Positions 1 through 6,769 of a stretch of 50,667 nucleotides of DNA are shown here, in pieces. Source of the DNA: an uncultured Clostridia bacterium (GTDB lineage Bacteria > Bacillota > Clostridia > Christensenellales > Borkfalkiaceae). Under the pieces are notes generated by a model that was given only the letters and a program-made list of their open reading frames with translations, searched no databases and was not told where the DNA came from. Positions within the stretch are counted from its first letter, which is position 1, and the number at the start of each line of letters is the position of its first letter. The stretch lies in NCBI GenBank assembly GCA_949878885.1, contig CATLBN010000013.1:1-50667 (forward strand). The letters are read 5' to 3'. Both the position numbers and the translations under genes were made by a program.

Positions 1-80
1 CTACCAAGTGACGGGGTTTGTTGCGGGTAAGCAAAAGAGCATTATGACAAAATTATGTATAAATCCATTCTATATGTTTA

Positions 81-416
81 GTGAAGGGACTTGATGATAA
101 AATCTTTCAAATTTATTTTTTAGGGCTCCCAAAAAGTATCTCTTCTGCAGGGCATTGGGTGATAGACTTGGACGAACTTATGTATAAGCTCAATCCGCGC
201 GGCATTGATTGCAAAGTCGATATGCCGCGTCTGCGTTGGCATAACGACACGGTGCGGCGTTTTAGGTATTTGCATCAAGATATACCCGTAACCATAAATA
301 TTGTGGAAAAGGCATTCCAATCGCACAACGTATTCAAAATCCAAAACGGACACCGTTGGATTATTAATTACGACCAACTTGAATTGGAAGTTTACAGGCA
401 ATTAGGGCGCATATAA
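81..416 (+). CDS. hypothetical protein, 111 aa, weak
   Basis: I do not recognise this protein. The frame is closed by a stop at 60-62 and has no ATG, so the start would be the GTG at 81, without a convincing ribosome binding site. The protein is basic and contains two similar segments, GHWVIDLDEL near residue 25 and GHRWIINYDQLE near residue 90. These resemble the short strand-plus-helix ends seen in excisionase-like or MerR-like DNA-binding proteins, but that is only an impression. It is followed by a strong hairpin, which supports a transcript ending there. It lies in the left accessory island. An antisense frame of similar length exists, so coding on this strand is likely but not certain. 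Confidence 0.4.
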   Translation: MKGLDDKIFQIYFLGLPKSISSAGHWVIDLDELMYKLNPRGIDCKVDMPRLRWHNDTVRRFRYLHQDIPVTINIVEKAFQSHNVFKIQNGHRWIINYDQLELEVYRQLGRI

Positions 417-431
417 GTCACAATAAAAGTT

Positions 432-461
432 TACAGCGGGCAGAATCTTCTGCCCGCTGTA
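432..461 (+). terminator. hairpin after the first small gene
   Basis: A perfect inverted repeat with 13-nt arms (TACAGCGGGCAGA and its complement) around an ATCT loop starts 15 nt after the stop of the upstream gene. The T-run after it is weak, so it may act as a 3' stabilising hairpin as well as a terminator. Confidence 0.6.
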
Positions 462-495
462 ATTTACCGCTATTTGAAAAAAATATTTTACTTTT

Positions 496-531
496 ACTTA
501 ACTTTTATGAGAGTTAAGTATATGTTATAAG
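496..531 (+). promoter_or_regulatory. putative operator-promoter of the exonuclease gene
   Basis: An inverted repeat ACTTAACT / AGTTAAGT with an 8-nt centre lies at 496-519. It is followed by a -10-like TATAAG at 526-531, about 70 nt before the exonuclease start. A palindrome lying over the -35 area is the usual layout of a repressor operator. No good -35 is visible. The two XRE regulators in this island are possible binders, which is inference. Confidence 0.35.
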
Positions 532-601
532 AGGCGAGGTGTTTACGCATTGAAATATCCATGTTAAAATATTAGCAACAAATACAAAAGGAGAGAAACA
601 A

Positions 602-1978
602 ATGAACTATTTATTTTTTGACATCGAAACAATCATGGCGGAAAGCATAAATCCGAGGATTGTATCTTTCGGTTATGTTCTAACCGATGAGCGGTTTAAT
701 GAAATAACCAAAGAGGATATTTTTATCAATCCGCAGGAAGAGACGGAAACGGCAAACAATTGGCAATGGAAACAAGATGCGACGAAAGATAAAGAGGGAT
801 TCAAGGCTTTTTATCATAAAATAAAGGGGTTGTTGGGAGCCAAAGACACAGTCATCGTGGGACATGGAACCGATAATGACGTGCAATACCTGTTTGACGA
901 ATGTGACCGTTTCCACTTTGAACCGATCGACTTCGACTATCTGGATACGAAAGCTATAGCCGATTTGTTGTTGGAAGCCGATATGCCCAAAAATCTGAAA
1001 AGTTTGTATGATCGTCTTTGCAAAAACAAGTGCGACTATCGGTGGCACAGAAGTTTAGACGATGCCTGTATGACCAAAGATGTGTTTGAGGCTTTGCTTG
1101 CCATTGCGAGAAAAGAAAACATCAACATTTTGGAAAACGAGGAATTGGTATCTAATTCTTTGCGTTGCGTTTACGGAAAACTTGCCGGCGTTGCGAAAAA
1201 AGGGAACGAATACTTCAGTTGCAATTTTGACGTTCCTATTATCGCAATAAAAGCTCAATGTAATTATGAGAACGGCGCAGGTTATAAAAGCGAAACCGTT
1301 CATTTGTATTACGACTATGCCGTTGACCGCTTTTTTGCGCCGAGGCACCCTAAAAAGGGAGACCAAAGGGGAAACAGCGTATTGCCCGCTTGTGCCTACG
1401 AGACTGCAAAAAAGAGAGCCGTGTACAAAGTAAACAAAATGTGGAATGTTGCAAAAAGCAGAAACAACAGCAAGGATTTTTTCCACAGGGAAGGGTATCG
1501 TCTTTCCGATATGAGAATAAAGCATATTTTTTATTCGCTTACGTCTTATGAGGTTTATGCAACGTTTAAAAAGGATTTTTTGGAGTTTGACTTTAAGATA
1601 CCGCTAAGCGGCAATTATTTGAAGAATGCTATCGGATATACGAAAGACACGGTTGTTGATTTGAAACGAGTTATAAAAAATGTTCACACGGTGGAAACGG
1701 CAAATAAATCTCTGCTTTTAATGGTTAAAATGAAATTCGGATATAAAGATAAAGCTTTTCCGAAAATTCGGGTAGAGGATTTACGTTACTCCGAAAATAT
1801 AAAGTACTTATTGGCAAAGGAATATGCCAACTTATTGAAAGAACCAAACGCACATAAAGGATTGAACGACACGCTTATAAGCGGAGATAAAACCTATATT
1901 CCGACCGAGCATGCATTTGATAACAATTTGTTTTCGGAACGACTTGTGCTGCCTGTTTTAGCGGAAGCAATTCGCTGA
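602..1978 (+). CDS. DEDDh 3'-5' exonuclease domain protein with an unknown C-terminal domain, 458 aa
   Basis: The N-terminal ~165 residues form a DnaQ-like DEDDh exonuclease. ExoI is FDIET near residue 6, ExoII is a GHGTDND block near residues 88-94, and ExoIII is HRSLDDACMT near residues 149-158 with the catalytic His and Asp present. Such domains trim DNA or RNA 3' ends using two metal ions. The remaining ~290 residues match no family I know and are basic and aromatic. The start is well supported by AAAGGAGAG just upstream of the ATG. The gene stands alone between its own promoter region and a bidirectional terminator in the left accessory island. A role in defence or in mobile-element nucleic-acid processing is inference. 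Confidence 0.8.
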   Translation: MNYLFFDIETIMAESINPRIVSFGYVLTDERFNEITKEDIFINPQEETETANNWQWKQDATKDKEGFKAFYHKIKGLLGAKDTVIVGHGTDNDVQYLFDECDRFHFEPIDFDYLDTKAIADLLLEADMPKNLKSLYDRLCKNKCDYRWHRSLDDACMTKDVFEALLAIARKENINILENEELVSNSLRCVYGKLAGVAKKGNEYFSCNFDVPIIAIKAQCNYENGAGYKSETVHLYYDYAVDRFFAPRHPKKGDQRGNSVLPACAYETAKKRAVYKVNKMWNVAKSRNNSKDFFHREGYRLSDMRIKHIFYSLTSYEVYATFKKDFLEFDFKIPLSGNYLKNAIGYTKDTVVDLKRVIKNVHTVETANKSLLLMVKMKFGYKDKAFPKIRVEDLRYSENIKYLLAKEYANLLKEPNAHKGLNDTLISGDKTYIPTEHAFDNNLFSERLVLPVLAEAIR

Positions 1979-1991
1979 TTGTGTGCAGAAC

Positions 1992-2031
1992 AAAAAAGAG
2001 CTATTACAAGGTCTTTGCAATAGCTCTTTTT
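1992..2031. terminator. bidirectional terminator between convergent genes
   Basis: The hairpin AAAAAGAGCTATT (1993-2005) pairs with AATAGCTCTTTTT (2019-2031). It is A-rich on one flank and T-rich on the other, so it can end both the rightward exonuclease transcript and the leftward four-gene operon. Confidence 0.85.
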
Positions 2032-2040
2032 GTCTAAGCT

Positions 2041-2598
2041 TCAATAATTTCTAAGTTCGTTGATCAATATCGTTTCCTTATTACAGCCTACGGGTTTATC
2101 GTATATTGTAAACTCGATAGTGAGACCGTAAAGATTGTGTTTTCGGATATAGAGCAATAAAAAATCTATCTGTGAAATTTTATTCAGCCTTTTATCGCAA
2201 AGATCCGTTTCGAAGTTGAATTCCGCACTTCCGTTATACATCGTTCGGTGATCCAGCTTTTCATCAGTCGTAGCGCAAATTCGGATTAAATCATTCTCGA
2301 CTTGAATTGCCCCCAAGATAATCTTATTTTTATATGCGTTTACGGAAACTGCGACTATTATATCGTTTGAAAAGTCGCCTTTAACGTTCAAATATTCCTC
2401 ATAGCTTTTTACGTATGCATAATGTGCATTCGTCTTATTTGAATGGCGTATAACATATAGCTCGGATCTGTTATCTTGGAAAAAGTTCCGTATTTTGTTG
2501 AGACGATTTTTGTTGACAAAAATTTCGGGGACGGTGTTCAGCCCCAATTTTTTAATCAATTCTCGACTTTCCTCTTTCGTCCTTGGGTTATATATCAT
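2041..2598 (-). CDS. hypothetical protein, 185 aa, coupled to the ThiC-like gene
   Basis: This is the last gene of a four-gene leftward operon. Its ATG (2596-2598) overlaps the TGA of the ThiC-like gene in an ATGA junction, so translation is probably coupled and the two proteins probably work together. It has no signal peptide or membrane segment and looks like a soluble alpha/beta protein. A segment reading YVIRHS near residue 47 and a final strand ending in ILINELR resemble the first and last strands of an ATP-grasp or PEP-synthase-type nucleotide-binding fold, but it is short for that family. I treat the resemblance as a weak hint only. No confident family assignment is possible by eye. 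Confidence 0.7.
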   Translation of the reverse strand: MIYNPRTKEESRELIKKLGLNTVPEIFVNKNRLNKIRNFFQDNRSELYVIRHSNKTNAHYAYVKSYEEYLNVKGDFSNDIIVAVSVNAYKNKIILGAIQVENDLIRICATTDEKLDHRTMYNGSAEFNFETDLCDKRLNKISQIDFLLLYIRKHNLYGLTIEFTIYDKPVGCNKETILINELRNY

Positions 2599-3743
2599 TT
2601 TAGATCATCTCCGCTTTTCAATGCACAAAACTCCCCGCACATAGTGCACTTTTTGCCATTTTGTACTTTATGCTTATACAACTCTTCCGCTGTCATTTTC
2701 GGAACAATTGAACAGTCTATAGAGCCTTTACAACCGACTACACTGCGCGCTGTTGCCATCTTTTCATCAAGCGATATATCTTCTGTCCGAGCGATATATC
2801 CTGCATGGGCGGCAATTTTAGCGGCAATTACTGCTTCTTTAACGTCTTCCGCGCTTGGCAATCCCAGATGCTCGGATCGCGAAACCGCCGTAACGAAATC
2901 TGCACCCGCATGTACGGCGGAAGAAACCGCAATGGAAGATGATACGTGGTCATAACCGAGTCCGCTGTCCGTAGCTACGGTCAATACGCGATAGGGGACT
3001 TTAACGAGCTCAATGGATTTTCTTACAATTTCCGGGATTAAATTTATTGGGCAATGCCCTATGCCTTCGACCATGATTCCCACGCCAGCATCTATTGCCC
3101 GTTGAGCCAACAGAGCGTTCCTTTCGAGTTCATCCCAATATTTCCGATTATTATAGACAGCGTCGTGGATACTTGCCGGTCTGAAAACACAACCCAAACT
3201 CAGCGTGATATTATATCGCTTTGCTATTTTCAAAATTTCGTCAAAGTACGTAAAGTAAAAATTATCTTTCCCCGTTGCGTTTATATTCTTAAATACCATC
3301 GTTCCGCCGCGACTGGTACACGGTATTATTCTGTCACTGTCTTTGAAATATCTCAGATCTTCTTTCAAAGCACTCGCGTGAACCGTGATCATATCGACGC
3401 CTATTTTTCCTTTTTCTTCTATCCCTTTCAATACATCGTCTTCGGAAAAATACGGTTTATCGTTATACAATACGTCGGCAGCTCTATCGTATACCGCTAT
3501 TGTCGATAACGGCAAATCAACGCTGTCGATAAGCCTTTTATGTATGTCGTTATATATTGGAAGTAAAGTGTGGTCTATCACTATATCCGCACCATACTCT
3601 TTGGCTGTCTTCGCTTTTGCGATCTCGGGTTCAAGGCTGTCGCCTTCGTTGCTCGCCCCTATACTTGCCAATATTTTGGGGTATTCTCCGTTATCTGTAA
3701 CTATTTTTTTACGTCTGTTTATATTTCCGATTACAAGCTGCAT
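2595..3743 (-). CDS. divergent ThiC-like radical SAM protein, 382 aa
   Basis: The protein aligns by eye with ThiC (HMP-phosphate synthase) along its length but lacks the ~50-residue N-terminal domain of ordinary ~430-aa ThiC. It keeps the C-terminal cluster motif CTMCGEFC that binds the radical-SAM [4Fe-4S] centre. It also keeps the two metal-binding His motifs, EGIGHCP (EGPGHVP in ThiC) and GLGYDH (APGYDH in ThiC), and the SRGG loop. Active-site segments differ: the usual GDGLRPG reads GCVFRPA. Altered substrate use is therefore likely. ThiC paralogues with changed chemistry exist, such as BzaF, which makes hydroxybenzimidazole. No thiamin genes or TPP riboswitch are nearby. Its operon partners are two XRE regulators upstream and an unknown protein downstream. 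The start is the ATG preceded by GGAGA. Confidence 0.8.
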   Translation of the reverse strand: MQLVIGNINRRKKIVTDNGEYPKILASIGASNEGDSLEPEIAKAKTAKEYGADIVIDHTLLPIYNDIHKRLIDSVDLPLSTIAVYDRAADVLYNDKPYFSEDDVLKGIEEKGKIGVDMITVHASALKEDLRYFKDSDRIIPCTSRGGTMVFKNINATGKDNFYFTYFDEILKIAKRYNITLSLGCVFRPASIHDAVYNNRKYWDELERNALLAQRAIDAGVGIMVEGIGHCPINLIPEIVRKSIELVKVPYRVLTVATDSGLGYDHVSSSIAVSSAVHAGADFVTAVSRSEHLGLPSAEDVKEAVIAAKIAAHAGYIARTEDISLDEKMATARSVVGCKGSIDCSIVPKMTAEELYKHKVQNGKKCTMCGEFCALKSGDDLK

Positions 3744-3779
3744 TTTTATCTCCGTCCTTAGCTGTAAAATATATCTCCG

Positions 3780-4910
3780 TTAATTGAGCGATACAGCTAC
3801 CCAAACTTGATTGTTTTTAACCATTTCCCAATATTTAAGCGGATTATGAATTGCCGTTTCTTCTTTTTCGGCGAGATACGCGTTTTTGATTCGACTCATT
3901 TCCTCCGAATCGATCGTTTTCATGTATTCATCGTAATGCACCGCTCGCTCACAAGTCGCTTTTATGCGCGCAATGTTTTTATTTACGGCAGAAAGACTCT
4001 CTTCCGCCTCGTTCCATTTATCGAGGACACGCAATACGCTTACGTTATCTGTATTTTCCACATGAATAACGGGGATGGAAACCAGCTGTAATTTATTTTC
4101 GCTTTCTTTTTGTTGCGTTCCGTAACGCTTGCTGAAATCGTGCCCCACGTTATAACGCACCTGTCCGCCGCAATTTATCATTTCAAATACCGTATTTTGA
4201 AGATATTCGGGTAAATTACGTCCTTGTTGTTTGCGCAATTCGCAGGGGAGCCACCTGAAATTCATGTACCGAAACGCCGTTACGATCTCGTCCTTGTCTG
4301 TCGAATTCAGACAACCGTATGCGGAAAGATACACCTTCGGATCTCCAGTTTCGAAACAGGCTTTCCACGGTACTTTCAAACAGCATTTATATGCTTGTTC
4401 GAGTTCCCAAATGATAGCTTTTTTGTCTCTGCCGTTGCGTGATAAAAAGTCGAGAAAATCGGTCTCTCCGTTATATTCTTTTAAGGTGTCGGAGTTGAAC
4501 ATATAGAATGTAGACAAATAGCCGAATTCGTCACGCCATGCGTCGTTCAATTTGCCAACCACGCGCCTGTACATCAGTTCGAAAAAGCGGGATTTTAACT
4601 TTTTATAAGTATTGAAAAATTTTACGGTTTGATTGTCGCGCATGGTTACCGCCGCATCGATTTTGAATTTCCGCAACCATTCGAATTCATTTCGCTGCTT
4701 TTCTGCCGACGCGTCGTCGGGCAATATACCGGATAAAAGGTCATCTATGGACGTCTGCAACAAACGCGACAGTTTATAAAGTATTTCTATACTTATGCTC
4801 CCCGCACCTTGCCATTGACTGATTGCCGCGGAAGTGATACCCAGCATAGCGGCAAGCTCTTTTTGCGATACGTTATACGTTTCGGTTATGCATTTTATAA
4901 ACGAATTCAT
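3780..4910 (-). CDS. XRE-family HTH protein with a long C-terminal domain, 376 aa
   Basis: An N-terminal helix-turn-helix of the Cro/C1 type occupies residues ~1-60, with QKELAAMLGITSAAISQW as the recognition region. It is followed by ~310 residues of unknown, mostly helical sequence. Its ATG overlaps the TAA of the upstream XRE gene by one base (TAATG), so the two are co-translated. The ThiC-like gene starts 36 nt downstream. Long C-terminal domains in XRE proteins often sense ligands or peptides. Here the neighbour suggests a response to the product or substrate of the ThiC-like enzyme, which is inference. Confidence 0.8.
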   Translation of the reverse strand: MNSFIKCITETYNVSQKELAAMLGITSAAISQWQGAGSISIEILYKLSRLLQTSIDDLLSGILPDDASAEKQRNEFEWLRKFKIDAAVTMRDNQTVKFFNTYKKLKSRFFELMYRRVVGKLNDAWRDEFGYLSTFYMFNSDTLKEYNGETDFLDFLSRNGRDKKAIIWELEQAYKCCLKVPWKACFETGDPKVYLSAYGCLNSTDKDEIVTAFRYMNFRWLPCELRKQQGRNLPEYLQNTVFEMINCGGQVRYNVGHDFSKRYGTQQKESENKLQLVSIPVIHVENTDNVSVLRVLDKWNEAEESLSAVNKNIARIKATCERAVHYDEYMKTIDSEEMSRIKNAYLAEKEETAIHNPLKYWEMVKNNQVWVAVSLN

Positions 4911-6253
4911 TAGATTGTCCCCTCCGCCATAAAATATTTGTTCTTTATTTCTTCAACGCTCATTTCGTCTATATTTTCATATAAATCCTTTGTACTCTGC
5001 TTATTGCGTCCGTTCACATATTCACGGTACGTAATATCGTATATGCTTCTATTACGAACTATCCGGCAGTACGGCTCCAACTCGTTTTCGCCCGCAAGCA
5101 AACGATCTTCCAGCTTGGCGTATTCCCTTTGATGTGCGGCAGTAAAAATAGGAAATCCGAAATCTGGGGAACAATGCTCCACTTCTACATATCGTTTTTG
5201 CGACACGTCGTAAACTATCGTGGGAGCACAGTATGTTTGATATAACTCCGCAAGCTCCCGTGCTATATATCGTTTTTTATTCTTTAAAACGCGCTTATAG
5301 TTTATTGCATGATTAACGGTTGCGCCGCAGTCGATAAGCGACTTAATAAACTCTTTTACCAAGTCTTCGCTATAATCGAAGTCATCGTCTTCGTCATGAC
5401 AAATACAATCGAGCGTTATCGTTAAAAGTTCATCTTTGTCCCAAGGCAAAAGCGATTTTACGAAGTCGAAGTATATAGGTCTCAAATCGAAAAGATTGTT
5501 CAACTCAACAGTTGTGCGGTGAAGATCCCTGAATCTATTGCAAATGGCACCCATGTCCGAAACCGATACCATCGGCATAAAATTACATACGCAACAACGC
5601 CGATTGATTTCGAAAAGCAATTCTTCGTCCGAACAAGACGTAAGGGAACCGGCTAATTTTTTCATATCGATTTTCACGTATTTGAGCCTATCGACATTGA
5701 AAGACTTTATCGTTTGTTTTCCTTTCTCGAAACAGTAGTACTGCTTAAAATACGATAAGCATAAATAATCGAATTCATCCTCATCAGTACGCGATATGTT
5801 GTTGCGCGCTAAAGCAAGCAACAGATAGCGATAACGCTCTTCTGCATGCATTTGAATTTTAAGAAGATCGACATCACTTTCACGCCAAAATTCTTCACAC
5901 GTTGATAGCCGTTCGGACGGCAGCAAAGGGCTGATATCCGACAAAATAGAGCTGCGCTCTCTTTCCTTGCAGTTGTGTTCTCCGAAATACAGCTCGTTGA
6001 AATCGACGGGAGTATGACGACCGCCTTCCAATATTTCGTCTGCGGTAACGCCGTAATATTTGGCGATATCTCTTAAGTTATAAAGGTCGGGGAGTGTCTC
6101 GCCACGCTCCCACTTGCTTATAGCCGCACATGAAAAGCCGCCGTATGCATCTATGCCGCAGAATTTGCTGAATTGCAACGAAAACTCCGTCTGCGTCAAT
6201 CCCTTTTCCGTTCTTAGTTCTTTTAAGAACTTGCCTACTTTTTTCTTGTCCAT
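4910..6253 (-). CDS. XRE-family HTH protein with a long C-terminal domain, 447 aa
   Basis: This is the first gene of the four-gene operon. Residues ~5-75 form a Cro/C1 helix-turn-helix (KGLTQTEFSLQFSKF, then AAISKWERGETLPD). The remaining ~370 residues are helical, rich in charged residues and Cys, and not recognised. It resembles the next gene in overall plan, so the two may be old paralogues or heteromer partners. The start ATG has a good binding site (GGGAGGTG). The ~190-nt upstream region holds candidate -10 boxes but no clear -35. Autoregulation is typical of such leading XRE genes. Confidence 0.8.
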   Translation of the reverse strand: MDKKKVGKFLKELRTEKGLTQTEFSLQFSKFCGIDAYGGFSCAAISKWERGETLPDLYNLRDIAKYYGVTADEILEGGRHTPVDFNELYFGEHNCKERERSSILSDISPLLPSERLSTCEEFWRESDVDLLKIQMHAEERYRYLLLALARNNISRTDEDEFDYLCLSYFKQYYCFEKGKQTIKSFNVDRLKYVKIDMKKLAGSLTSCSDEELLFEINRRCCVCNFMPMVSVSDMGAICNRFRDLHRTTVELNNLFDLRPIYFDFVKSLLPWDKDELLTITLDCICHDEDDDFDYSEDLVKEFIKSLIDCGATVNHAINYKRVLKNKKRYIARELAELYQTYCAPTIVYDVSQKRYVEVEHCSPDFGFPIFTAAHQREYAKLEDRLLAGENELEPYCRIVRNRSIYDITYREYVNGRNKQSTKDLYENIDEMSVEEIKNKYFMAEGTI

Positions 6254-6440
6254 AATCGCACCTCCCGAATTTATACCTTAATTTTAGCATATCGGAAAAG
6301 AAATAGCTACGTCTTGTTTCTAATATCTAATTACTAAATATGTTCATTTGTTAAGCATTGGTATAATTATAACATAAACCCATACAAATTTCATGGATAT
6401 TAAGACTTTTTTATGGTGACATCGCAAAGTAAACAAATAA

Positions 6441-6481
6441 AAATAGCTCAAACGCTAACTAAAAGTTGGTTTGAGCTATTT
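6441..6481 (-). terminator. terminator of the element-borne tRNA-Arg
   Basis: A 13-bp stem (AAATAGCTCAAAC and its complement) encloses a loop that itself contains AACT/AGTT. It lies directly after the 3' end of the tRNA on the minus strand and is followed by a T-rich tract in that direction. Confidence 0.8.
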
Positions 6482-6485
6482 TCAC

Positions 6486-6561
6486 TGGTGCGTCTGCCGA
6501 GGCTCGAACTCGGAACATCGCCGTCGGAGGGCGACGTTTTATCCAATTAGACTACAGGCGC
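6486..6561 (-). tRNA. tRNA-Arg (CCG), complete, probably element-borne
   Basis: This 76-nt cloverleaf has an encoded CCA. The anticodon stem is TCGCC/GGCGA around loop CTCCGAC, giving anticodon CCG for CGG codons. The T arm is CCGAG-TTCGAGC-CTCGG. Two C-A mismatches are visible, one in the acceptor stem (position 5 with 68) and one in the D stem (12 with 23). These are unusual for a core tRNA and fit a fast-evolving mobile-element tRNA. It lies 151 nt from a host tRNA-Arg cut at the same anticodon loop, and its arms differ from that gene. It was therefore not formed by rejoining the host halves. Confidence 0.85.
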
Positions 6562-6598
6562 AGATTGTTTTCGCGGAGAGCTTGTAAGCTATGCGCGA

Positions 6599-6622
6599 GG
6601 GTGTAATTTTGGGTGTAATTTT
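6599..6622. repeat. tandem 12-bp direct repeat in the junction spacer
   Basis: GGGTGTAATTTT occurs twice in direct succession (6599-6610 and 6611-6622). A related inverted copy with an insertion lies near 6655-6667. Short repeats next to a tRNA junction resemble arm-type binding sites of tyrosine recombinases. Function is inferred. Confidence 0.5.
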
Positions 6623-6712
6623 TTTATGCATTGTGGTTTTGTTTCCGAAAGAATTACCTACACCCACAACATATAGTAAATTTTTCAGGAAAGACCTACG
6701 TAGCCGTGAAAA

Positions 6713-6751
6713 GTCGGAGGCTCGTGCTCTATCCAACTGAGCTACGGACAC
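6713..6751 (-). pseudogene. 5' half of a host tRNA-Arg (CCG), cut at the anticodon loop
   Basis: From 6751 downward the sequence is a standard tRNA 5' half: acceptor GTGTCCG, TA, D arm GCTCAGTTGGATAGAGC, anticodon 5' stem CGAGC and loop CTCCGAC. The expected GCTCG 3' stem is replaced by unrelated sequence starting TTTTC. The 3' half is not found in this window. The break at the 3' edge of the anticodon loop fits integration of a mobile element whose core site is the anticodon loop. The left island is the inserted DNA. Confidence 0.85.
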
Positions 6752-6769
6752 AAAAATTATTTATTAAAT

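What the first reader, a model, noticed from the sequence alone, without database searches (positions are those of the whole stretch)
2041..6253. Mobile-looking operon: two XRE regulators, a ThiC-like radical SAM enzyme and an unknown protein
The four genes overlap or nearly touch (TAATG, 36 nt, ATGA). The ThiC-like protein keeps the Fe-S CxxCxxxC motif and both metal His motifs but changes the substrate loop (GCVFRPA in place of GDGLRPG) and lacks the N-terminal domain. There is no thiamin context and no room for a TPP riboswitch. On an island, this points to an unknown metabolite or modified nucleotide made by rearranging aminoimidazole ribotide or a similar substrate, sensed by the XRE pair. 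The system is not one I know.
Basis: partly seen in the sequence, partly recalled or inferred. Interest (0 to 1): 0.72.

Follow-up and report, generated by a model that had tools for sequence, protein, structure and literature searches.

The report
Mobile cassette with repurposed ThiC enzyme
A small set of genes carried by mobile DNA in gut bacteria contains a remodelled relative of the vitamin B1 enzyme ThiC that has probably been given a new substrate, travels with an unknown partner protein and often sits among anti-virus genes, which hints at a new kind of bacterial defence chemistry.

Summary
It is cargo of an integrative element in a tRNA-Arg gene, 98% identical to one in another family (Pumilibacter muris). 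The five genes recur at 49-75% amino-acid identity in two MAG contigs (Gastranaerophilales, Scatousia); ThiC-like+HP185 also occur in two other settings. HP185 is directly downstream in 6 of 6.

The ThiC-like protein forms its own clade outside ThiC, BzaA and BzaB. Metal, cluster and phosphate residues and most SAM contacts are kept, but residues touching the AIR base and ribose (N228, D383, Y449) and the catalytic Cys are replaced in 6 of 6. It is unlikely to be an HMP-P synthase; the host has a thiamin transporter, and no other ThiC was found. Three of four lineages sit with defence or MGE-conflict genes.

Best reading: a mobile, probably defence-related cassette in which a ThiC scaffold makes a new phosphorylated small molecule that HP185 processes. 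The changed active site is well supported; the defence role is inferred from neighbours only. My paper searches showed no such system.

The parts
4910..6253 (-). XRE1: HTH_3 regulator with a large C-terminal region of unknown family (447 aa), first gene of the operon
   Evidence: PF01381 2.9e-10; 98.7% identical in L032, 49% in L036/L037
3780..4910 (-). XRE2: HTH_3 regulator with C-terminal region of unknown family (376 aa)
   Evidence: PF01381 6.6e-8; 98.4% in L032, 58% in L036/L037
2595..3743 (-). ThiC-superfamily enzyme of a separate clade (382 aa); metal, cluster, phosphate and most SAM residues kept, AIR base and ribose contacts and catalytic Cys replaced
2041..2598 (-). HP185: partner protein of unknown family (185 aa), directly downstream of the ThiC-like gene in 6 of 6 loci
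602..1978 (+). EXO: DEDDh-type exonuclease (458 aa), convergent; D7, E9, D93, H149, D154 present
   Evidence: PF00929 1.3e-10
1979..2040 (.). 62-nt gap between the convergent EXO and HP185 genes; an A/T-flanked palindrome read by eye as a possible two-way terminator
   Evidence: sequence; the terminator scan did not list it
6254..6440 (-). upstream region of XRE1, partly conserved with L036/L037 (TATAATTATACCA..CTTAAC, TAGAAACAAG); a promoter-like site at 6394-6366
   Evidence: alignment; scan, whose 20 promoter-like sites are no more than the 18.4 expected
6486..6561 (-). tRNA-Arg(CCG), inferred to be carried by the element
6711..6749 (-). 5' half of the host tRNA-Arg gene, broken at GCCTCCGACTT: right junction of the element
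   Evidence: this half differs between the two hosts, the sequence after it is closely similar
81..416 (+). small ORF matching the end of a 206-aa ORF that directly follows the integrase in L032 (74% over 92 residues); the window's contig starts here

Best explanation
A mobile, probably defence-related cassette. (1) Shown by sequence: a ThiC-superfamily enzyme distinct from ThiC/BzaA/BzaB kept the residues that bind the extra metal, the [4Fe-4S] cluster, the substrate phosphate and most of SAM, and replaced those that hold the AIR imidazole and one ribose contact, and the catalytic cysteine. (2) Inferred: it still makes a 5'-deoxyadenosyl radical and still takes a phosphorylated, probably ribose-phosphate-like substrate, but a different one, and gives a different product. 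(3) Shown: HP185 is its constant neighbour; inferred: it works on the product or the substrate (an ATP-grasp-like enzyme is a guess). (4) Inferred: XRE1/XRE2 keep the operon off until a trigger such as phage infection, and the product, with the nuclease, then acts against phage or rival mobile DNA.
For: Own 6-row clade (100/100) apart from 54 ThiC/BzaA/BzaB rows (100/100). Of 97 columns at least 95% conserved in those 54, 49 are kept in at least 5 of the 6, 14 partly, 34 lost (changed or absent) in 6 of 6; the lost ones include D383 and the catalytic Cys, both 54/54 elsewhere. Kept 6 of 6: Y286, H322, S342, R343, G344, R386, E422, H426, E489, H490, and the three cluster Cys (in L033 the third lies behind an in-frame TGA). 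Residue roles: PMC4389238 passages, PMC11117688 passages. HP185 adjacent in 6 of 6. Purifying selection between window and L036: pS 0.72-0.80, dN 0.17-0.37. Element jump: 98.1% identity over 6.6 kb with Pumilibacter muris, host-specific tRNA half outside the junction. Neighbours: BrxA, BrxB, BrxC, PglX pieces, PglZ, BrxL and an SpbK-like protein left of a MobL relaxase and integrase in Pumilibacter; AbiEi/AbiEii, HsdM, Eco57I-type methylase, PDC-S31 and an integrase-like ORF in L037; CARF, MkoA-like helicase, NYN-OST-HTH and DEDDh in one run of genes in L033, with Fic (PDC-S04) beside it. Thiamin: G000 has a ThiT-type transporter behind a sub-threshold TPP riboswitch hit and no other PF01964 match in its 97% complete assembly.
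Against: No phage or biochemical data. Defence neighbours are common on mobile elements, so ordinary cargo would show the same company; I ran no background control. For L034 I identified no defence gene, and the window itself shows none beside the cassette because its contig ends there. The whole subfamily is 6 loci, about 4 independent lineages, and the two MAG contigs could be mis-binned. PADLOC has no model matching the ThiC-like protein or HP185 (E up to 0.1) and only HTH-range hits for XRE1/XRE2. HP185 homologues occur in 14 of 396 order genomes that had no ThiC-family match, beside genes I read as housekeeping in the loci looked at, so HP185 can work without the enzyme. L259 at the SAM adenine is His in 6 of 6, so SAM binding is not untouched. 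In L033 an in-frame TGA lies in the cluster motif. The Y449 to R assignment has a one-residue deletion three columns away. No structure could be predicted.
Confidence: 0.5

Rival explanations
1. Metabolic cargo: the enzyme still makes HMP-P or a related pyrimidine from AIR and helps a thiamin-needy host or element.
For: PF01964 304.5 bits; radical machinery kept; the host seems to rely on thiamin uptake, so a HMP-P source could help. Thiamin genes with thiC are known to be lost and regained by horizontal transfer in Gluconobacter (PMC8474910, passages).
Against: D383, Y449, N228 and the catalytic Cys replaced in 6 of 6; below the ThiC equivalog cut-offs (276.1/460, 302.9/410, 200.3/650); no TMP-TENI (ThiE) hit above cut-off in G000; no TPP riboswitch over its gathering score in the window; no thiamin gene recognised among the cassette genes scanned or read. 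In the Gluconobacter case the whole pathway moves together, here it does not.
Confidence: 0.1
2. Benzimidazole or other B12 lower-ligand enzyme like BzaA/BzaB/BzaF.
For: Same superfamily; BzaA also has Ser at 228.
Against: TIGR04386 228.8 bits against a cut-off of 700; outside BzaA and BzaB in the tree; D383 and the catalytic Cys are kept in every BzaA and BzaB row aligned but lost here; no bza or cob gene recognised in the cassettes. BzaF itself was not compared.
Confidence: 0.05
3. Maker of a modified base or nucleotide used to mark the element's own nucleic acid, with EXO and the other nucleases as the counterpart, as in 7-deazaguanine systems.
For: Phosphate site kept, base contacts changed; a DEDDh nuclease gene in 5 of 6 loci; QueC-family enzymes were likewise moved to defence (PMC13329287, abstract).
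Against: No transglycosylase- or modification-type gene recognised in the cassette; HP185 unassigned.
Confidence: 0.15
4. Toxin-antitoxin or addiction module: the ThiC-like product is toxic and HP185 or EXO neutralises it, keeping the element in the cell.
For: Compact cassette with XRE regulators beside the attachment site; HP185 next to the enzyme in 6 of 6.
Against: HP185 also occurs without the enzyme; the enzyme is the most constrained of the five proteins and needs SAM and a cluster, unusual for a toxin; no toxicity data.
Confidence: 0.15

Closest known systems
ThiC, phosphomethylpyrimidine synthase (PF01964; TIGR00190, PRK13352)
   Same: Fold family by profile; metal, cluster, phosphate and most SAM residues; C-terminal CX2CX3C as in the short bacterial ThiC rows
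   Different: AIR base contacts, one ribose contact and catalytic Cys replaced; separate clade; below equivalog cut-offs; shorter N terminus; mobile, no thiamin genes with it
BzaA and BzaB (5-hydroxybenzimidazole pathway)
   Same: ThiC paralogues with another product (recalled)
   Different: They keep D383 and the catalytic Cys and branch on the ThiC side of the tree
Viperin/SAND radical-SAM antiviral enzymes
   Same: Idea only: a radical-SAM enzyme making a nucleotide-like antiviral (PMC9642334 passages)
   Different: Different radical-SAM family; product here unknown
QueC-family enzymes in CBASS IV and qatABCD
   Same: Precedent for a base-biosynthesis scaffold repurposed for anti-phage defence (PMC13329287 abstract; PMC13279940 start of abstract)
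   Different: Unrelated enzyme; function here unproven
Mokosh MkoA-like helicase and CARF proteins (only in the L033 operon)
   Same: Helicase hits MkoA at 4.1e-79, CARF protein hits a CARF model at 7.3e-79
   Different: The rest of a Mokosh system was not looked for; the ThiC-like and HP185 genes are not part of any system known to me

Membership tests
ThiC (HMP-P synthase) | Match to PF01964 over its cut-off | tested here: met
   304.5 bits, cut-off 25
ThiC (HMP-P synthase) | Equivalog cut-offs of NCBIfam ThiC models | tested here: not met
   302.9 of 410, 276.1 of 460, 200.3 of 650
ThiC (HMP-P synthase) | AIR base contact D383 and catalytic Cys (CcThiC C474) | tested here: not met
   54/54 in ThiC/BzaA/BzaB rows, 0/6 here; roles from PMC4389238 and PMC11117688 passages
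ThiC (HMP-P synthase) | SAM, metal, cluster and phosphate residues | tested here: met
   Y286, H322, S342, G344, R386, H426, E489, H490 and three Cys kept. Exceptions: L259, which packs on the SAM adenine, is His in 6/6; in L033 the Cys motif is interrupted by TGA
ThiC (HMP-P synthase) | Placement inside ThiC in a tree | tested here: not met
   6-row clade 100/100 apart from 54 rows; midpoint root
ThiC (HMP-P synthase) | Makes HMP-P, complements thiC | not testable with these tools
   needs a bench
BzaA/BzaB | TIGR04386 (BzaB) cut-off; place in tree | tested here: not met
   228.8 of 700 bits; outside both clades. BzaA rows identified only as the gene beside BzaB
BzaF | Clade with BzaF | not tested
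   no BzaF sequence was obtained
Viperin/SAND | Classical radical-SAM domain | tested here: not met
   Pfam scan up to E 1 gives ThiC_Rad_SAM and a weak ADH_zinc_N hit, no other radical-SAM domain
Known anti-phage system | Match of the core genes to PADLOC models | tested here: not met
   none for ThiC-like and HP185; only HTH-range hits for XRE1/XRE2; DEDDh and PDC-S48 models for EXO over its exonuclease part
Known anti-phage system | Protects against phage | not testable with these tools
   needs a bench
Integrative mobilisable element | Integrase, relaxase, tRNA junction | tested here: met
   in L032: PF00589 3.9e-25, MobL 1.7e-15, right junction. The left end was not found; in the window the integrase side is cut off
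ATP-grasp (for HP185) | Profile similarity to ATP-grasp proteins | tested here: inconclusive
   hhalign best to PurD and to a 4-row ATP-grasp set, E 0.053, probability 1%; a non-ATP-grasp control (the ThiC-like profile) scored better, E 0.0034; no PDB or Pfam support

The most novel reading that the evidence does not exclude
A second radical-SAM scaffold, ThiC, has been recruited by mobile DNA for immunity: it converts a cellular nucleotide-like phosphate into a poison or signal, HP185 activates or transfers it, the XRE pair or a sigma-like factor switches it on, and the linked DEDDh exonuclease trims the poisoned ends from the host's own nucleic acid, as a proofreader would. Precedents for the parts: viperin nucleotides, and a viral proofreading exonuclease that removes such a nucleotide (PMC9415739 passages).
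Probability: 0.17. Interest if true: 0.92.

Novelty: new variant of a known kind. Interest (0 to 1): 0.68.

Why it matters
[quoted passage not shown] A natural clade that keeps the radical machinery but drops the AIR contacts would show what the scaffold can do with other substrates. If the defence reading holds, it would add a radical-SAM family to immune small-molecule chemistry, and the cassette is small enough to test directly.

Tried and rejected
CxxCxxxC as a distinctive trait: rejected, the bacterial ThiC and Bza rows have it. A TGA-coded selenocysteine in L033: no support, the fold around it is no better than shuffles, z 0.27. Phage origin: no confirmed relative in viral contigs for the ThiC-like protein, the HP185 alignment, XRE1 (94) or the ThiC-like alignment, scans that reach only sequences sharing short exact peptide patterns; none in phages or plasmids for HP185 or EXO; the ThiC-like protein hits 10 phage and 376 plasmid records, all under 60% identity, and XRE1 only over its HTH part in 3 plasmids. 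More subfamily members among seven genomes with extra or weak hits: none over 40% identity. Rest of the element in G000: only a 231-base, 73% match on another contig. Left attachment site in the Pumilibacter stretch: not found. HP185 fold by profile: nothing significant (the runs of 81 were in global mode and are not used). EXO-like genes in four other order genomes: 33-38% over the DEDDh part, in three next to a gene I read as serS, so not cassette members. The terminator scan did not list the HP185-EXO palindrome and promoter-like sites are at the shuffled level. The Fisher value printed rests on a hand-picked table and is not used. Rows dropped: two truncated ORFs (L016, first ORF of L073) were left out of the tree and column counts, and L031, a partial ThiC, was never aligned. 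Literature: the searches meant to find a ThiC relative in defence or on mobile elements were 46, 61, 86, 102 and 105. One search (ThiC with anti-phage, whole words) found 0 papers; the others gave capped listings (15 of 726, 20 of 596, 10 of 31, 10 of 152), and 46 also caught words such as 'thick'. The one relevant listing, PMC8474910, concerns transfer of ordinary thiamin genes (passages). PMC7159879 and PMC12926258 hold no whole word ThiC in their main text. Most subscription papers are not in the library.
Full report
What is there. The operon claimed at 2041-6253 exists as described: XRE1 (447 aa), XRE2 (376 aa), a ThiC-like protein (382 aa) and HP185 (185 aa), all on the - strand, with a 1-base overlap, a 36-nt gap and a 4-base overlap. 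XRE1 and XRE2 match HTH_3 only in their N-terminal parts; the ThiC-like protein matches PF01964 at 304.5 bits; HP185 matches nothing above a cut-off. A convergent 458-aa protein at 602-1978 (EXO) matches RNase_T (1.3e-10) and has the five DEDDh residues.

Recurrence. The ThiC-like protein was searched in 396 genomes of the order: 30 have a match at E 1e-3 or better, but only 4 are of the subfamily (the window's own, G095 99%, G312 67%, G241 59%). The other 26 are 31-39% identical; 24 of them went into the tree and fall with ThiC, one more is truncated and one was not aligned. One scan of genome contigs confirmed 3 loci: Pumilibacter muris (the same contig as G095, judged by its length of 177743 and the 99% match) and two MAG contigs at 75%, titled Candidatus Gastranaerophilales and Candidatus Scatousia excrementigallinarum. 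NCBI puts the first in Melainabacteria and the second nowhere in particular (its place in Gastranaerophilales is recalled). The two cassettes are nearly identical, and small contigs with mobile genes can be mis-binned. I count four lineages: window+Pumilibacter, the MAG pair, G312, G241.

Conserved content. HP185 lies directly downstream in 6 of 6 loci. XRE1, XRE2 and the convergent full-length EXO are present in 4 of 6, i.e. two lineages. L033 (G312) instead has, on one strand and in close order, a 120-aa ORF, a DEDDh protein (36% to EXO over 188 residues), a CARF protein, a sigma-like protein, an MkoA-like SF1 helicase, a 487-aa ORF, a NYN-OST-HTH protein, then ThiC-like and HP185. L034 (G241) has a related 120-aa ORF, a 176-aa ORF and a related sigma-like protein before ThiC-like and HP185. 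The sigma assignment is below the curated cut-offs. In 200 order genomes, 6 have an EXO match at 1e-20: 2 full-length, the window's own and Pumilibacter, and 4 with only a 33-38% DEDDh match. Whether G312 and G241 were among those 200 is not shown.

Selection. Between the window and L036, synonymous differences are near saturation (pS 0.72-0.80) and dN is 0.17 for ThiC-like, 0.18 HP185, 0.28 EXO, 0.30 XRE2 and 0.37 XRE1. The ThiC-like protein is thus the most constrained. Between window and Pumilibacter there are too few changes to read a ratio (2 synonymous and 5 non-synonymous in ThiC-like).

Mobility. Window 150-6752 is 98.1% identical to L032; the rest of the window gave no other blastn match to that 20-kb locus except 115 bases. 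At the right end both hosts show the 5' half of a tRNA-Arg gene broken at GCCTCCGACTT; that half differs between the hosts, while the sequence after it, including a complete tRNA-Arg(CCG) gene, is shared. In Pumilibacter the element also carries an integrase and a MobL relaxase and, further left, BrxA, BrxB, BrxC, PglX pieces, PglZ, BrxL and an SpbK-like protein. I did not find the left end, so that BREX lies in the same element is likely, not shown. In the window the element is cut by the contig end, and the relaxase-integrase stretch of L032 was not found elsewhere in G000 beyond a 231-base match.

The enzyme. A tree of 60 rows (6 of the subfamily; 24 ThiC of the order, 14 BzaA, 15 BzaB-type rows and AtThiC) puts the six in a clade of 100/100 apart from all others, on a long branch; the root is a midpoint, so the direction of descent is not shown. 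BzaB rows came from TIGR04386, over its cut-off in 22 of 199 phylum genomes, of which 15 loci were used, and BzaA as the neighbouring gene. Of 97 columns at least 95% conserved in the 54, 49 are kept in at least 5 of the 6, 14 partly, and 34 changed or absent in all six. The pattern is selective when set against the AtThiC structure (PMC4389238, passages). Phosphate ligands Y286, H322, S342, G344, R386, metal ligands H426 and H490, SAM-ribose ligand E489, ribose ligand E422 and the three cluster Cys are kept. D383 (imidazole N3) becomes Cys, Ser or Ala; Y449 (stacks on the AIR amino group) becomes Arg; N228 (ribose) becomes Ser; the catalytic Cys (C474 in CcThiC, PMC11117688, passages) becomes Thr; L259 at the SAM adenine becomes His. 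A Cys follows the first metal His (GHC) in 6 of 6. D383 and the catalytic Cys are 54/54 in the others, Bza included. N228 is not diagnostic, since BzaA has Ser and BzaB mostly Leu there. The Y449 assignment depends on a local alignment with a one-residue deletion nearby.

Thiamin context. G000 (97% complete) holds one PF01964 protein, no TMP-TENI hit over the cut-off (best 25.1 of 27 bits), and one sub-threshold TPP riboswitch hit (36.7 of 54.3) ahead of a ThiT-type transporter (PF09515 4.3e-39). The cell thus seems to import thiamin. ThiD and other thiamin genes were not searched.

HP185. The family was found in 18 of 396 order genomes: the 4 with the ThiC-like gene and 14 of one family, 13 of them with genomes of 0.8-1.0 Mb, none of which had a ThiC-family match. 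It was in 6 of 391 class genomes and 1 of 398 phylum genomes (the window's own), overlapping draws. In 4 of 7 stand-alone loci looked at it follows an RNHCP protein (one checked by Pfam, PF12647 5.5e-31; the others by reading), near dapB- or rpoC-like genes, named by reading. Fifteen columns are invariant in 18 rows, among them K8, R51, R118, E162, F163, G171, E181, R183. The E162-F163...E181-x-R183 pattern reminds me of the metal-binding end of ATP-grasp proteins (recalled); the profile test is not significant, and a control profile scored better.

Defence association. Pumilibacter: BREX and SpbK-like. L037: AbiEii (2e-107), AbiEi (3e-59), HsdM (1.2e-110), an Eco57I-type methylase (1.5e-36), PDC-S31 (6e-31) and an integrase-like ORF. 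L033: CARF (7e-79), MkoA-like helicase (4e-79), NYN (1.3e-35), plus Fic PDC-S04 (4e-60), ArdA and PcfJ close by. In L034 I identified none, but most of its flanking ORFs were only read, not scanned. Three of four lineages is suggestive, but mobile elements often carry defence genes and no background rate was measured.

Verdict. Well supported: a mobile cassette, a separate ThiC-superfamily clade, loss of AIR base contacts with retention of most of the radical and phosphate machinery, and a constant neighbour HP185. Inferred: a new phosphorylated substrate, HP185 as its processing partner, regulation by XRE or sigma-like genes, and a defence role. Rivals with weight are an addiction module and a nucleic-acid-modification system; a thiamin or B12 role is unlikely, though ordinary thiamin genes do move between bacteria (PMC8474910, passages). 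My searches for a ThiC relative in defence or on mobile elements (46, 61, 86, 102, 105) showed no report of such a system; apart from 105, which found 0 papers, their listings were capped.

Noticed in passing
window 6486-6561 and 6711-6749; L032 13855-13930: The element breaks the host tRNA-Arg gene in the anticodon loop and seems to bring a complete tRNA-Arg(CCG) of its own.
   Followed up: partly
L033 about 10240 (- strand): In-frame TGA inside the cluster-binding Cys motif of the G312 ThiC-like gene; no hairpin support for selenocysteine. Either a decayed copy or an assembly error; intact relatives exist.
   Followed up: partly
L093 3363-19157: BREX gene set in the Pumilibacter contig with PglX in pieces: a 631-aa part followed by a 233-aa PglX-matching ORF and a 251-aa ORF with a similar start (not scanned), which looks like a switchable specificity arrangement; an SpbK-like gene lies between PglX and PglZ.
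   Followed up: no
L033 9652-19418: One-strand run: 120-aa ORF, DEDDh exonuclease, CARF, sigma-like, MkoA-like helicase, 487-aa unknown, NYN-OST-HTH, ThiC-like, HP185: a possible larger conflict operon.
   Followed up: partly
L039, L040, L042, L095: HP185 homologue directly after an RNHCP zinc protein in small genomes without ThiC; a search for RNHCP gave no relevant paper.
   Followed up: partly
window 1-115 and L032 2750-2864: The left edge of the window matches a different place of the Pumilibacter element (86%), so the two elements are not collinear there.
   Followed up: no
G000 contig C5 32611-32704 (L064): Sub-threshold TPP riboswitch ahead of a ThiT-type thiamin transporter in the window's genome.
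   Followed up: yes
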